Positions 11,094-20,923 of a stretch of 36,708 nt of DNA are shown here, piece after piece. Below the pieces are notes generated by a model, which had not been told where the DNA came from, did no database searches, and saw only the letters and a list, made by a program, of their open reading frames with translations. Source of the DNA: an uncultured Chitinophagaceae bacterium (GTDB taxonomy: Bacteria; Bacteroidota; Bacteroidia; Chitinophagales; Chitinophagaceae); assembly GCA_903904335.1 (NCBI GenBank), contig CAIVCF010000170.1, positions 1 to 36,708 on the forward strand. The letters are read 5' to 3'. Position numbers and translations under genes: made by a program. The first letter of the stretch is position 1. Every line of letters begins with the position of its first letter.

Positions 11094-11498
11094 ATGAAAA
11101 AAGTATTTTTCCTGATTGCTTTCTTTGTTACCTGCGCATTCACAACTGTCATAGCACAAGGCGGTGGTCAAATGGATCCTGCTGCACGTTTGGAAAGAAT
11201 GAAACAAATGTACAAACCGCAGTTGATCGAAAAAGCAAAGATCACTGATGCAGAAGCAGATAAAGTGGTTGCTATTGTTGCAGAAATGCAACCGAAAATG
11301 CGTCCTATTATGCAGGACCAAAGTTTAAGTGATGATGACAAAAAGAAAAAGATGGATGAACTGAATGCTGAAAGAACTAAAAAATTCAAAGACATTCCAT
11401 TAACTGATGATCAAGTAAAAGCAGTTGATGCTACATTATTAGAGATCAGAAAAAATATGATGCAGGGCGGTGGCCCTCGTCCGGGTGGCGGCAAATAA
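11094..11498 (+). CDS. small exported protein with a charged helical core and Gly-rich tail
   Basis: A 134-residue exported protein. A signal peptide (KKVFFLIAFFVTCAFTTVIAQG) precedes a helical, highly charged region (~30-120) rich in Lys, Asp and Met. The C-terminus is Gly/Pro-rich (MQGGGPRPGGGK). The repeated ITDAEADKV and LTDDQVKAV segments resemble the LTxxQ motif of Spy/CpxP-type periplasmic proteins, so a distant relation is possible. I cannot assign a function. It lies alone between two strong terminators, so it is probably its own transcription unit. Confidence 0.75.
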   Translation: MKKVFFLIAFFVTCAFTTVIAQGGGQMDPAARLERMKQMYKPQLIEKAKITDAEADKVVAIVAEMQPKMRPIMQDQSLSDDDKKKKMDELNAERTKKFKDIPLTDDQVKAVDATLLEIRKNMMQGGGPRPGGGK

Positions 11499-14445: not shown

Positions 14446-14629
14446 ATGCGTATTTATGAATGAATAAGGAAATATTTAGCTGCTCAGTTATTGAAAGTAC
14501 TTGTGTGTAACAGACTACTTTGGGGAGTGGCACAAGCATTGATGCGCTATGTTTCTGCTGCCGGTCGAAAAAAGCAATGAAAATTATACAATTTATTTTC
14601 TAAACACATAACGCTGCTTTGTTTTATCC

Positions 14630-14637
14630 TATTTTTG
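14630..14637 (+). promoter_or_regulatory. TAnnTTTG -7 box of sucD
   Basis: TATTTTTG matches the Bacteroidota -7 consensus exactly and lies 27 nt before the chosen ATG at 14664. This also argues against a start at 14619, which would fall before the box. Confidence 0.42.
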
Positions 14638-14663
14638 CGGCACAAAAATTTAATTTAAGCAAC

Positions 14664-15536
14664 ATGTCAGTATTAGTCAATAAGAATTCGAAGATATTAG
14701 TTCAGGGTTTTACCGGAACAGAAGGAACTTTTCATGCTACTCAAATGATCGAATACGGAACAAATGTGGTAGGCGGTGTAACACCTAATAAAGGCGGTAC
14801 AACCCATCTCGATAAACCTGTGTTCAATACAGTTGCTGATGCGGTTAAAGCTACCGGTGCCAATGTAAGTATCATTTTTGTGCCCCCGGCATTTGCTGCA
14901 GATGCCATTATGGAAGCTGCTGATTCCGGTATTGCATTAGTTGTTTGTATCACAGAAGGCATACCCGTGCAGGATATGGTTAAAGTGAAAAATTATTTAC
15001 AGAGCAAGAGTACAAGATTGATCGGGCCAAACTGTCCGGGTGTCATTACAGCCGATGAAGCAAAAGTGGGCATCATGCCGGGATTTATTTTTAAGAAAGG
15101 AAGGATCGGTATTGTTTCAAAATCAGGGACATTAACCTACGAAGCTGCTGATCAGGTTGTAAAAGCAGGATTGGGAATCAGCACTGCCATTGGTATTGGA
15201 GGCGATCCGATCATTGGCACCACCACCAAAGAAGCTGTTGAACTGTTTATGAATGATCCCGAAACGGATGGTATCATCATGATCGGTGAAATAGGCGGCA
15301 GCATGGAAGCTGATGCAGCAAACTGGATAAAAGATAATAAGAAAAAACCCGTTGTTGGTTTTATCGCCGGACAAACTGCTCCTGCCGGAAGAAGGATGGG
15401 TCATGCCGGAGCGATCATTGGTGGCGCAGATGATACTGCAGCAGCAAAAATGAAAATCATGACTGCCTGCGGAATCAACGTAGTGGCAAGTCCTGCTGAT
15501 ATCGGCAAAACAATGGCTGCTGTTTTAAAGAAATAA
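14664..15536 (+). CDS. sucD: succinate-CoA ligase (ADP/GDP-forming), alpha subunit
   Basis: A 290-residue TCA-cycle subunit that interconverts succinyl-CoA and succinate with nucleotide phosphorylation. The start at 14664 ([21 protein letters not shown]) gives the standard length, and an upstream frame to 14619 would cross the promoter-like box. CoA-binding Rossmann residues are in [10 protein letters not shown]. The ligase signature GGDPIIGTT is at ~180-188. The phosphohistidine is in [10 protein letters not shown] (around residue 247). The beta subunit sucC is not in this window, so the two subunits are unlinked or it lies further away. A perfect palindromic terminator follows. Confidence 0.96.
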
Positions 15537-15760: not shown

Positions 15761-16180
15761 ATGAAAAGAGTTATCATTTTTTTATCTGTACTTTTTATTT
15801 TGACTGATGTTGCAAATGCACAGCAACAAAAAGAATTAAGCATTCATTGTTCATTTCCCCAACAATTAAAAGCAGGAAGTAAAGTGAATCTGAAAGTGAT
15901 CATTTCACATACAATACAAAAAGAGCAAACGGGCAATCTGACACTCGAACTAACTGATGCAACTACTAAAAAAAGTGTAGATGGCTGGTTCCTTAATATT
16001 TTCCCTTTTCAATATTTCACTTCGATTAAGGGAGAAAATTTTACAACACAATTCCCGTTTACCATACCCTCTGATTATCATGGAAAGTTTATAATGACTC
16101 TAAAAGCAATTTGCGGAGATGCAAAAGATTCTCTGTGGCATTCATTTAATATTGCTTCTAAAATGATAAATCATGAGTAA
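15761..16180 (+). CDS. secreted single-domain protein resembling an alpha-2-macroglobulin MG domain
   Basis: A 139-residue exported protein. The signal peptide KRVIIFLSVLFILTDVANAQ is followed by one beta-sandwich domain. FPQQLKAGSKVNLKV, the GNLTLELTDATTKKSVDGWF stretch and the later FTIPSDYHGKFIMTLKA recall the macroglobulin-like domain of bacterial A2M-family proteins. In those, 'P-R-F-(L/F)-R-E-G-D' and 'L-E-L-x-D-A-x-T-G-K' segments occur in the same order. It lacks every other A2M part: bait region, thioester CxEQ motif and helical thioester domain. So it is a single detached domain or a convergently similar one. It overlaps the next gene by 8 bp, implying joint translation. Function unknown. 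Confidence 0.65.
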   Translation: MKRVIIFLSVLFILTDVANAQQQKELSIHCSFPQQLKAGSKVNLKVIISHTIQKEQTGNLTLELTDATTKKSVDGWFLNIFPFQYFTSIKGENFTTQFPFTIPSDYHGKFIMTLKAICGDAKDSLWHSFNIASKMINHE

Positions 16181-17246
16181 CATCCATGTTGATTATATCA
16201 TTCTCGGACAGGGTATCACCGGCACTTTTCTAAGTTATTATTTACAAAAAGCAGGGAAGAAAATCATAGTGATCGATGATGCTGAAATCTTTACTGCATC
16301 TCGTATTGCAAGCGGTGTGATCAACCCTGTTACAGGCAGGCGTGTTGTTGAAACATGGATGATCAACGATATCATGCCTTTTGCTGTAAATGCTTATCTG
16401 CAATTGGGAAATGAAATCAATGAATCGGTTATTCAGCAATGCAATGTGTTAAGTTTTCATGCAAGTGTACAAATGAAACAGGCATTTGAAGATCGTTTGC
16501 CTGATGATCATAAATATTTGCGCACACCATTAAACGAAGAATCATTACATCAATATTTTAATTTTTATCTTGGTGTGGGAGAAACCAATCCCTGCTATTT
16601 AGCGGATATTCAAATACTCTTATTGAGTTGGAAAAAAAAATTGCTCAACGATAATTTATTACTCGAAGAAAAATTTGATTGGGCAGATTGCATCATAACA
16701 GAAAACAACATCACTTATAAAAATATCGTTGCTGAAAAAATAATTTGTTGTGAAGGTTCGGCAGGTGTTCACAATCCTTATTTTACTTTATTGCCTTATG
16801 CAAAAAATAAAGGCGAAGTGATCATTGCAGAAATCCCTGATCTTCCAAGAACAAATATTTATAAACAAGGATTAACAATAGTACCCTGGAAAGAAAATTT
16901 ATTCTGGATCGGTTCACCATACGAATGGAATTATTCCGATACCAATCCAACAGCAGCATTTAAAATAAAAACACAATTACAATTACAGCAATGGTTAAAA
17001 TTGCCGTATAAAATTTTAGATCACTGGGCCGCTGAAAGACCCGCCAATGTTGAGCGACGGCCATTTGTAGGTTTGCATCCTTTAATGCCTTCTGTTGGTA
17101 TTTTAAACGGCATGGGAACCAAAGGTTGCTCGCTTGCTCCTTTCTTTGCAAACGAACTAACAGAATATCTTATCAACAACGCTCCTATCAATCCATTGGC
17201 AGATGTGAGAAGATTCTCAAAAGTTTTATCCCGCTCAATTTCATGA
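16173..17246 (+). CDS. FAD-dependent oxidoreductase (DAO family)
   Basis: A 357-residue flavoprotein of the D-amino-acid oxidase/glycine oxidase type. The FAD dinucleotide-binding motif is at the very start (VDYIILGQGITGTFLSYYL), followed by a short FAD-ribose segment IIVIDDAE. ASRIASGVINPVTGRR corresponds to the second conserved DAO motif. A late AAERPANVERRPFVGLHP and LNGMGTKGCSLAPFFA close the FAD site, as in this family. The substrate amine is unknown. Its start lies inside the end of the A2M-like gene (8-bp overlap), so the two are co-transcribed, an odd pairing of a secreted and a cytoplasmic protein. Confidence 0.85.
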   Translation: MSNIHVDYIILGQGITGTFLSYYLQKAGKKIIVIDDAEIFTASRIASGVINPVTGRRVVETWMINDIMPFAVNAYLQLGNEINESVIQQCNVLSFHASVQMKQAFEDRLPDDHKYLRTPLNEESLHQYFNFYLGVGETNPCYLADIQILLLSWKKKLLNDNLLLEEKFDWADCIITENNITYKNIVAEKIICCEGSAGVHNPYFTLLPYAKNKGEVIIAEIPDLPRTNIYKQGLTIVPWKENLFWIGSPYEWNYSDTNPTAAFKIKTQLQLQQWLKLPYKILDHWAAERPANVERRPFVGLHPLMPSVGILNGMGTKGCSLAPFFANELTEYLINNAPINPLADVRRFSKVLSRSIS

Positions 17247-17287: not shown

Positions 17288-17695
17288 ATGAACAATACCC
17301 CAACCGAAGCTAATTACAGTATTCCGCTCAGTTATCGCAAAATGGAAAACCTTCATATTGTTTTCTGGTTATTTAAAGATATCAGTTGGTGCATGATCTG
17401 GCGACCATTGGGCATTGCCATGATTTTTCCAACTTTGATCATTTCAATAGTCATCGCATATCGAACCAGACAATACATGAGTGAATTATGCCATAATGTT
17501 GCTATCAGTTTTTGGATCACTGCCAATGCCTATTGGATGCTGAGTGAATTTTTTAAAATAGATGCTGATGTTGTTTACGGCGAAATCACGTATAAACATC
17601 TTGCCATCATTCCTTTTGCGATCGGGATTTTATTGCTTGGTTTTTATTATCTGATCTGGAAACCAAAACACCATAACGAGTTAGAAACGATGTAA
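17288..17695 (+). CDS. small integral membrane protein of unknown function
   Basis: A 135-residue protein with about four hydrophobic segments: ISWCMIWRPLGIAMIFPTLIIS, an adjoining IVIAYR end, VAISFWITANAYWMLSEFF and IIPFAIGILLLGFYYLIW. Aromatic residues (Trp, Tyr) are frequent at the membrane borders. The N-terminal ~20 residues and the last ten (KHHNELETM) are polar. No family recognised. It lies 41 bp after the FAD enzyme on the same strand, so it may belong to that operon, and ends 10 bp before the convergent MFS gene. Confidence 0.72.
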   Translation: MNNTPTEANYSIPLSYRKMENLHIVFWLFKDISWCMIWRPLGIAMIFPTLIISIVIAYRTRQYMSELCHNVAISFWITANAYWMLSEFFKIDADVVYGEITYKHLAIIPFAIGILLLGFYYLIWKPKHHNELETM

Positions 17696-19057: not shown

Positions 19058-20923
19058 ATGTATCGTTCTCATACTTGTGGTGAATTAAGGATCGGTGATG
19101 TAAACAAAGAAGTAACATTATCAGGCTGGGTGCAGACTGTTAGGAAATTTGGCGCCATCACTTTTGTTGATCTGCGTGACCGTTACGGCATCACACAATT
19201 ATTATTTGGCGAAAGTTTGCAAAGTGAATTAGATGCAAATCCTTTGGGCCGTGAATTTGTGTTACAGGCAAAAGGAAAAGTGAATGAACGCAGCAATAAA
19301 AATGCAAATATTGCAACAGGTGAGATTGAAATTGTGGTGAGTGAATTTAAAATATTAAATAAATCTGCTGTTCCTCCTTTTACGATTCAGGATGATACGG
19401 ATGGTGGCGATGATCTGCGAATGAAATATCGTTACCTGGATCTGCGCAGAAATGCAGTGAAGAAAAATTTAGAATTGCGTTACGCAGTGGGTCGTTCCAC
19501 CAGAAATTATTTACACGAAAATAATTTCATGGATATTGAAACACCATTCTTGATTAAATCAACTCCCGAAGGTGCAAGAGATTTTGTGGTGCCATCAAGA
19601 ATGAATCCGGGGCAATTTTATGCATTACCTCAATCACCACAAACATTCAAGCAATTGTTGATGGTGAGTGGTTACGACCGTTATTATCAGATCGTGAAAT
19701 GCTTTCGTGACGAGGATCTGAGAGCTGATCGTCAGCCTGAATTCACGCAGATAGATTGTGAAATGAGTTTTGTAGAACAGGAAGATATTTTAAACATGTT
19801 TGAAGGTTTGGTAAAACGAATTTTTAAAGATGTCAAGAATATTGATTACACAGAAAAGGTGGAACGCATGAGTTGGGAAGAAGCGATGTGGCAGTTTGGA
19901 AATGATAAGCCCGACATCCGTTTCGGTATGAAGATCTGCAATTTAAAATTTCCGCAACATATTTTTCCAACAAAAGAAGATCAATCATCATTAATCAGCG
20001 CTGCTGATTTTAAAGTATTCGATGAAGCTGAAACTGTTGTTGCCATTGCTGTTCCCGGTTGCAGCGAATACACTCGCAAACAAACAGATGAAATAACTGA
20101 ATGGGTAAAACGTCCGCAAATCGGCATGAAAGGTCTGGTAACGATTAAGTGCAATGCCGACGGTACTTTTAAAAGCAGCGTTGATAAATTTTATACTGAA
20201 GAAAAATTAAAAGCGATTGCTGTTGCAACAAGTGCCAATGCAGGTGATCTAATTTTAATTTTAGCCGGTGCCGAAGAAAGAACCAGAAAAGCCATCAGTG
20301 AACTGCGTTTGGAAATGGGTAAACGTTTGGGCTTCAGAAAAGATAATGAATTCAAACTTTTATGGGTATTGGATTTTCCATTGTTTGAGTTTGCTTTGGA
20401 AGATCAGGATGGTGGTGGTGCAGGCCGTTGGGTAGCAAGGCATCATCCGTTCACAAGTCCGAAGCCTGATCATATTAATATCATGATCAACAATCATCCT
20501 AAAGTTGCAGACTTAGATAAATATTTAGAACATCCGTATGCCGGCATTAAAGCCAATGCGTATGATATGGTGTTGAACGGAAATGAAATTGGTGGTGGTT
20601 CTATCAGAATTTTTCAAAGAGAATTACAAGAAAAAATGTTTGCAGCTTTGGGAATGAATGAAGCTGAACAACAACATAAGTTTGGGTTTCTATTAGGTGC
20701 TTTTGAATATGGTGCTCCTCCGCATGGCGGACTGGCATTTGGTTTTGATCGCTTGTGTGCCATATTAGGCGGCAGTGAAAGTATCAGAGATTTTATTGCA
20801 TTTCCTAAAAATAATTCAGGAAGAGATGTGATGTTGGATGCACCTTCAACGATTGATGCAAAACAGTTTGATGAGTTGCAGATAAAGTTGGATTTGAAAC
20901 CCCCAACCCCTAAAGGGGAGTAA
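19058..20923 (+). CDS. aspS: aspartate-tRNA ligase
   Basis: A 621-residue class II synthetase that charges tRNA-Asp. The anticodon-binding OB domain is at ~1-110 ([21 protein letters not shown]). Class II motif 2 is seen as [19 protein letters not shown] (~212-230). The bacterial GAD insertion lies at ~290-410, and motif 3, [13 protein letters not shown], at ~562-574. It is somewhat longer than the E. coli enzyme (590). The last ~8 residues (KPPTPKGE) are encoded by a palindromic CCCC-TAAA-GGGG element, not by a conserved tail; the conserved protein ends around DELQIKLDL. Its own terminator follows. Confidence 0.96.
20897..20920 (+). repeat. C/G-rich palindromic element forming the 3' end of aspS
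   Basis: CCCC (20907-20910), TAAA and GGGG (20915-20918) form a compact hairpin preceded by a further CCCCC-AA run, in an otherwise AT-rich setting. It encodes the last residues of AspS just before the TAA at 20921. Confidence 0.55.

What the first reader, a model, noticed from the sequence alone, without database searches (positions are those of the whole stretch)
15761..16180. Stand-alone alpha-2-macroglobulin-like domain, translated with an oxidoreductase
A signal peptide plus one domain resembling a bacterial A2M macroglobulin domain is encoded without bait or thioester regions. It overlaps the next gene, a cytoplasmic-looking FAD enzyme, by 8 bp. This could be a domain relic of a decayed A2M gene or a small secreted protein in its own right.
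Basis: partly seen in the sequence, partly recalled or inferred. Interest (0 to 1): 0.5.

Follow-up and report, generated by a model that had tools for sequence, protein, structure and literature searches.

The report
Lone domain left from A2M gene
In a family of freshwater and soil bacteria, a giant protein resembling our alpha-2-macroglobulin (a protease trap) has in many lineages shrunk to one small exported domain that is still kept intact by selection, which suggests that this domain has a job of its own.

Summary
The 139-aa ORF at 15761-16180 is real. It has a signal peptide plus one macroglobulin domain and overlaps a FAD-oxidoreductase gene by 8 bp. Pfam A2M alone misses it (E 0.11), but homology is firm. 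The same domain sits at about residues 1330-1450 of ~2,050-aa A2M proteins encoded in the same slot (sucD-[A2M]-FAD-orf135-AspS) in other genera. The AlphaFold model matches MG7 of complement C3/C4 (bacterial MG9; Z 11-12). The single-domain form is not peculiar to this genome: 46 of the 80 best named-genome loci carry it, all 46 frames intact, 44 of 46 between sucD and the FAD gene. dN/dS is 0.13-0.22, so it is a maintained gene, not a decaying relic. Intermediates exist at this locus: MG9 to C-terminus (636-760 aa) and MG9+bMG10 (266 aa). Every reduced form found keeps MG9, though the search used MG9 as bait. On an rpoB tree, full versus reduced needs 10 changes (8 forced), so reduction recurred. 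The MG9 tree instead groups most singles, so convergence or allele transfer stays open. Reduced forms lose residues conserved only in full-length proteins but keep VDGWFxNxFPxQYFT. I propose a trap-independent envelope binding function for that loop; inferred, not shown.

The parts
15761..16180 (+). single-domain A2M-derived protein, 139 aa (signal peptide + MG9 domain)
   Evidence: ORF; orthologues; AF2 model pLDDT 89.6
15761..15820 (+). predicted signal peptide, residues 1-20, cleavage before Gln21
   Evidence: read from sequence by eye; Q21 is 90% or more conserved in 47 single-domain rows
15827..16165 (+). MG9 (vertebrate MG7) macroglobulin domain, residues 23-135
   Evidence: VIA-align 2 to C4/C3/CD109/TEP1 MG7, Z 11.0-11.8, about 2.3-2.7 A over 100-106 residues
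15977..16021 (+). conserved loop VDGWFLNIFPFQYFT (residues 73-87)
   Evidence: 11 invariant columns in 17 single-domain proteins, 8 of them here; F81 in 24/24 reduced and 23/37 full
16173..17246 (+). FAD-dependent oxidoreductase (DAO, PF01266), overlaps the MG9 gene by 8 bp
   Evidence: 54.1 bits against a cut-off of 27.9; found next to full and reduced A2M forms alike
14619..15536 (+). sucD (succinyl-CoA synthetase alpha), left border of the conserved slot
   Evidence: name from sequence and recall; 82-96% identical orthologues border the slot
17288..17695 (+). orf135, conserved protein of unknown family, right border
   Evidence: no Pfam hit; syntenic
19058..20923 (+). aspS, outer right border of the conserved block
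   Evidence: name recalled; syntenic

Best explanation
The gene is what remains of a ~2,050-aa thioester-type bacterial A2M encoded at the sucD-FAD locus: a signal peptide joined directly to MG9, the macroglobulin domain that carries the CUB/TED arm. The bait domain, the CUB/TED domains and the other MG domains are gone, so it cannot trap a protease. It is exported to the periplasm (predicted) as a stable beta-sandwich that, most likely, binds an envelope partner through the conserved loop VDGWFxNxFPxQYFT. That loop is an elaboration of this A2M orthologue and is the part selection keeps when the rest is discarded. Shown here: locus identity, domain identity, intact frames, purifying selection, loss of the full-length-only residues and retention of the loop. 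Inferred: export, partner binding, and that the same function existed in the full-length protein. Confidence in identity and origin is about 0.95; in the binding mechanism about 0.35.
For: MG9 of full A2M is the match (E 4e-21 to 1e-8 for 10 of 10 full proteins compared, 26-41% identity). Full and reduced genes occupy the same slot. The full-length relative carries MG2, PF00207 and bMG10 above cut-off, and bait domain and MG4 slightly below. The C-terminal arm of a full-length relative folds onto Salmonella A2M (E 6e-24). The single domain folds onto C3/C4 MG7. dN/dS is 0.22 in the genus and 0.13-0.16 in three other lineages. R34 is present in 37/37 full and 1/24 reduced forms; G124 in 37/37 full and 1 of 22 reduced rows with a residue there; F81 in 23/37 full and 24/24 reduced. 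The paralogous ~1,810-aa A2M has a CxEQ thioester but no DGWF/QYFT (5 of 5 examined).
Against: No partner, localisation or activity is shown. The loop motif could be needed only for folding of this MG9 variant. In distant full-length A2Ms (G019, G034, G011) the loop differs, so it is not universal. Reduced forms were found with an MG9 query, so forms keeping another domain could be missed; a full-length query in 34 genomes found none, but 3 were cut by contig ends. dN/dS in the window's genus (0.22) is three times that of the FAD neighbour (0.07).
Confidence: 0.6

Rival explanations
1. Single origin: one lineage made the single-domain allele once and it then replaced full-length alleles elsewhere by transfer or recombination at the conserved flanks (or both coexisted ancestrally and were sorted), so the reduction was not repeated many times.
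For: The MG9 tree puts 14 of 17 singles on one side of a starred branch. The AU test rejects the species-tree pairing of single G272 with full G226 and of the g109 singles with g109 fulls (p 0.0024 both).
Against: 126 columns with long branches and parallel changes in clearly separate reduced lineages (G124 to S in g83, G020 and the singles) make convergence likely. G171 with its genus is not rejected (p 0.22), nor are the C-terminal forms in g5 and g11 (p 0.39, 0.28). The rpoB tree needs 10 changes, 8 forced. The locus tree pairs G272 with G226 (100*). No listed matching genome carried both forms: matches per genome were 1 except in G002, where one gene is split over two contigs.
Confidence: 0.35
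2. Functionless decaying relic, kept only by chance.
For: It is a fragment of a larger gene, evolves faster than its neighbours in the genus, and is commoner in smaller genomes (median 3.0 against 4.5 Mb).
Against: 46 of 46 single-domain frames intact; dN/dS 0.13-0.22; loop kept across at least ten genera.
Confidence: 0.05
3. A translational leader cistron whose main role is to drive coupled translation of the FAD enzyme, the protein itself being incidental.
For: Tight spacing to FAD in 44 of 44 loci that have it (-68 to +11 nt from the stop codon).
Against: Selection acts on amino acids. Two g66 singles lie away from FAD. FAD genes elsewhere lack any A2M-derived gene upstream (7 genomes: G008, G024, G009, G015, G022, G005, G031).
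Confidence: 0.07
4. An unrelated Ig-like secreted protein that resembles MG domains by fold only.
For: Pfam and PDB sequence searches are below threshold; other Ig-like domains also score Z above 10.
Against: Same locus, graded intermediates, and sequence E values to 4e-21 with full-length A2M.
Confidence: 0.02

Closest known systems
Bacterial A2M type I (E. coli ECAM, Salmonella SaA2M)
   Same: Same domain (MG9); full-length orthologues of the window protein have the A2M layout, most with CxEQ (32 of 37)
   Different: The window protein is one of about 13 domains; no bait, CUB or TED
Bacterial A2M type II (P. aeruginosa MagD, thioester-less; PMC5764988, passages read)
   Same: Some full-length orthologues here also lack CxEQ (5 of 37)
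   Different: MagD is full length (1,495 aa) and has partner genes; the window protein is one domain
Complement C3/C4, CD109, TEP1 MG7 domain
   Same: Predicted fold, Z 11.0-11.8
   Different: 9-16% identity; no multidomain context
'TED arm' of ECAM (TED, CUB, CTMG, MG9; PMC4498604, passages read)
   Same: The 636-760-aa reduced forms at this locus correspond to this arm; those of g11 keep CSEQ
   Different: The window form kept only MG9 of that arm

Membership tests
Alpha-2-macroglobulin family (protease-trapping inhibitor) | PF00207 A2M match above cut-off | tested here: not met
   12.8 bits, E 0.11, cut-off 21; 8 of 47 rows of A2 (window + 46 singles) match at E <= 0.1, best 4e-4
Alpha-2-macroglobulin family (protease-trapping inhibitor) | macroglobulin (MG) beta-sandwich fold | tested here: met
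   AF2 pLDDT 89.6; MG7 of C3/C4 Z 11-12
Alpha-2-macroglobulin family (protease-trapping inhibitor) | descent from a full-length A2M gene | tested here: met
   orthologous locus and BLAST E 4e-21
Alpha-2-macroglobulin family (protease-trapping inhibitor) | bait region | tested here: not met
   139-aa frame; a full-length query finds only its residues 1336-1478 in the window's genome, at this gene
Alpha-2-macroglobulin family (protease-trapping inhibitor) | thioester domain with CxEQ | tested here: not met
   no PF07678 in the 5 genus genomes; absent from the protein
Alpha-2-macroglobulin family (protease-trapping inhibitor) | protease inhibition or trapping | not testable with these tools
   biochemical
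Type II (thioester-less) bacterial A2M such as MagD | full set of MG domains with bait region but no CxEQ | tested here: not met
   single domain only

The most novel reading that the evidence does not exclude
MG9 of this Chitinophagaceae A2M has acquired a second, trap-independent function carried by the VDGWFxNxFPxQYFT loop. Because of it the protease trap could be thrown away at least eight times, by different routes (MG9 to C-terminus, MG9+bMG10, MG9 alone), with convergent loss of the inter-domain contact residues, and MG9 survived every time. It would be a natural domain-function dissection of an A2M.
Probability: 0.35. Interest if true: 0.7.

Novelty: new variant of a known kind. Interest (0 to 1): 0.5.

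Why it matters
A2Ms are known as large multidomain traps, and what bacteria use them for is largely unsettled. A lineage in which the gene is whittled down to the same single domain, with selection maintained, says which part does something that bacteria still need, and gives a small (about 12-kDa) protein on which that function could be tested. It also exposes a blind spot: these proteins fall below Pfam cut-offs, so they would not be recognised as A2M-derived.

Tried and rejected
Rejected: chance ORF; unrelated Ig-like protein; relic without function (see rivals). The 'oxidoreductase partner' idea is not supported as specific: the FAD gene follows full-length A2M too and lies without A2M in at least seven genomes. 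A TED or other A2M remnant elsewhere in the window's genome: none found (its one MG2 match lies in an 804-aa frame). Profile search of the PDB by sequence gave nothing. IQ-TREE codon models ran but printed no omega in the lines that I filtered, so the dN/dS values are NG86. The C-terminal-arm model (pLDDT 77.4) gave no coordinates to me, so contacts of the loop could not be measured.

Rows dropped: 12 of 61 loci from the concatenated tree for too little sequence. G153 (its rpoB piece has zero distance to that of another genus, probably contamination) and G101 (very long branch) were dropped from the final rpoB tree after being seen; with them the count was 10 changes and 5 forced (quick tree), without them 10 and 8 (careful tree). 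G081 and G101 were left out of the AU tests.

Biases: alignments A2/A3 come from a scan with the pattern N[IV]FPxQYFT, so conservation of those letters there is by construction; the motif claim rests on A1 and on the table. Reduced forms were sought with MG9. The match list is cut after about 150 rows, so counts from it are lower bounds. Genera compared in the trees were chosen because reduced or full forms were seen there. In one search, 5 of the 37 'full' rows are cut at a contig end (3) or split by frame (2).

Literature: searches listed nothing on single-domain A2M proteins in this family. One search (macroglobulin + Chitinophagaceae) found 0 papers; one search found 1 unrelated paper.

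Full report
Observation. The ORF at 15761-16180 (+) encodes 139 aa, begins with a signal peptide (by eye), and overlaps the FAD gene (16173-17246) by 8 bp. Pfam alone gives A2M PF00207 at E 0.11, 12.8 bits against a cut-off of 21. The PDB sequence search gives nothing relevant.

Homology. A genome search with the protein matched 25 of 59 relatives, mostly inside frames of about 2,000-2,100 aa; the window's own genus has the short form. Against ten full-length proteins the short protein aligns to residues ~1290-1446 with E 4e-21 to 1e-8. A full-length relative carries MG2, PF00207 and bMG10 above cut-off, and bait domain and MG4 slightly below. The C-terminal arm (MG9 to end) of another full-length relative, predicted from a 20-row alignment at pLDDT 77, matches Salmonella A2M (E 6e-24) and E. 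coli A2M. The single domain, predicted from a 46-row alignment at pLDDT 89.6, matches MG7 of C4, C3, CD109, CVF and TEP1 at Z 11.0-11.8 with 100-106 residues aligned; some other Ig-like domains (protein 4.2, factor XIII, a glucanotransferase) score as high or nearly so, so the structure supports but does not by itself prove the assignment. In the bacterial numbering of PMC4498604 (passages read) vertebrate MG2 and MG6 are MG4 and MG8, so MG7 is MG9 (my inference); that the C3 residues concerned are MG7 is recalled.

Locus. In other genera the ~2,050-aa gene lies in the same slot, sucD-[A2M]-FAD-orf135-(MFS)-AspS. In the window's genus the slot holds the 139-aa gene; G003 has a group of genes inserted between sucD and it. 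None of the five genus genomes has a PF00207 or PF07678 match anywhere, and in the window's genome a full-length A2M query finds only this domain.

Distribution. Among 394 family genomes 227 match. The 61 loci that I examined hold 17 single-domain genes, 6 MG9-to-C-terminus genes (636-760 aa; one, G230, cut by a contig end), 1 MG9+bMG10 gene (G020, 266 aa; bMG10 45.5 bits, cut-off 26.2) and 37 full-length genes, of which 3 are cut at contig ends and 2 split by frame. In the named-genome collection 180 loci matched and the best 80 were kept: 46 single (all frames intact), 25 full, 9 cut by contig ends; this set overlaps with the 61. 44 of 46 singles have sucD upstream and the FAD gene downstream at -68 to +11 nt from the stop codon. 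Named members include Sediminibacterium and Hydrotalea MAGs and freshwater Chitinophagaceae MAGs; full forms include Sediminibacterium salmoneum.

Selection. NG86 dN/dS of the mature part is 0.22 in the window's genus (FAD 0.07, sucD 0.05) and 0.13-0.16 in three other sets (FAD 0.11-0.13); Fisher tests on the three genus pairs give p 2e-9 to 4e-8. The gene is maintained but evolves faster than its neighbours in the genus.

History. Six groups that the tool codes as one genus hold both full and reduced forms (g5, g11, g66, g74, g88, g109). On an rpoB tree of 48 genomes, full versus reduced needs 10 changes (bootstrap range 9-11), 8 forced by well-supported branches. A four-gene locus tree gives 7 changes, 5 forced. 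Against this, the MG9 tree groups 14 of 17 singles by form, and the AU test rejects uniting single and full rows of g74 and of g109 (p 0.0024 each), while g5, g11 and g88 are not rejected. Parallel changes after reduction, seen also in clearly separate reduced lineages (G124 to S in g83 and G020), can produce this, but transfer of the short allele cannot be excluded. The full-length A2M tree places G226 with g11 (99*), which fits the locus tree and gives no sign that G226 regained its full gene recently. No listed matching genome carried both forms. Reduced forms tend to be in smaller genomes (median 3.0 Mb in 24 against 4.5 Mb in 37, Mann-Whitney p 1e-5, not corrected for kinship; exceptions G081 7.3 Mb, G251 5.7 Mb).

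What is kept and what is lost. In the table of 37 full and 24 reduced rows, R34 is in 37/37 full and 1/24 reduced; G124 is in 37/37 full and 1 of the 22 reduced rows that have a residue there (17 S, 2 T). These residues (R-F..E-D and DGEE) are probably inter-domain contacts (inference). The loop VDGWFxNxFPxQYFT behaves in the opposite way: F81 is in 23/37 full and 24/24 reduced, and 11 columns, 8 of them in this loop, are invariant in 17 singles found without the motif pattern. In distant full-length proteins the loop differs (G019, G034, G011), and the ~1,810-aa paralogue lacks it in 5 of 5 examined. The thioester motif CxEQ is present in 32 of 37 full forms, in both g11 C-terminal forms, and not in g83 or G251.

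Mechanism. The short protein cannot trap a protease: bait and thioester domains are absent. The best reading is an exported beta-sandwich that binds an envelope partner through the conserved loop, a function that also existed in the full protein. The FAD gene is probably an operon companion by synteny: it follows full and reduced forms alike and exists elsewhere without A2M. Every step beyond sequence, fold and selection is inference.

Controls on bias. A full-length query in 34 genomes (14 reduced, 20 without an MG9 match) found in the reduced ones only the MG9 region (in G081 also a match in a separate 1,937-aa frame), and in the others full-length or paralogous A2M, contig-cut pieces (G064, G016, G074) or nothing; no small remnant of another domain was seen. 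Sensitivity for small remnants of fast-evolving domains is limited.

Novelty. Known: full A2Ms of types I and II, and loss of large proteins, A2Ms named among them, in endosymbionts (PMC4007534, passages read). Paper searches listed nothing on single-domain A2M proteins in this family; the library holds only open-licence papers.

Noticed in passing
window 17288-17695 (+): orf135, a conserved protein (89-94% identical in the genus) syntenic with the FAD gene in much of the family, has no Pfam match at E <= 10.
   Followed up: no
L097, L098, L099 (G413, G370, G113), L041, L115: Full-length A2M of several Sediminibacterium-group and other genomes lack the CxEQ thioester motif although otherwise full length.
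   Followed up: partly
L032 (G014), L108 (G296): A signal peptide joined directly to MG9-CUB-TED-bMG10, with CSEQ kept: an isolated 'TED arm' of 760 aa.
   Followed up: partly
L086, L087 (G221, G158): Two single-domain genes with a longer C-terminal tail lie away from the sucD-FAD locus.
   Followed up: no
L242 (G153:C225): An rpoB piece with zero distance to that of another genus (G230), probably MAG contamination.
   Followed up: partly
L111 (G310), L112 (G360): Full-length A2M genes split over two frames, by sequencing error or true frameshift.
   Followed up: no
window 11094-11498 (+): 134-aa ORF with a possible signal peptide, next to the biotin carboxylase gene, with only a sub-threshold Pfam match (ANIS5_cation-bd, E 0.0016).
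   Followed up: no
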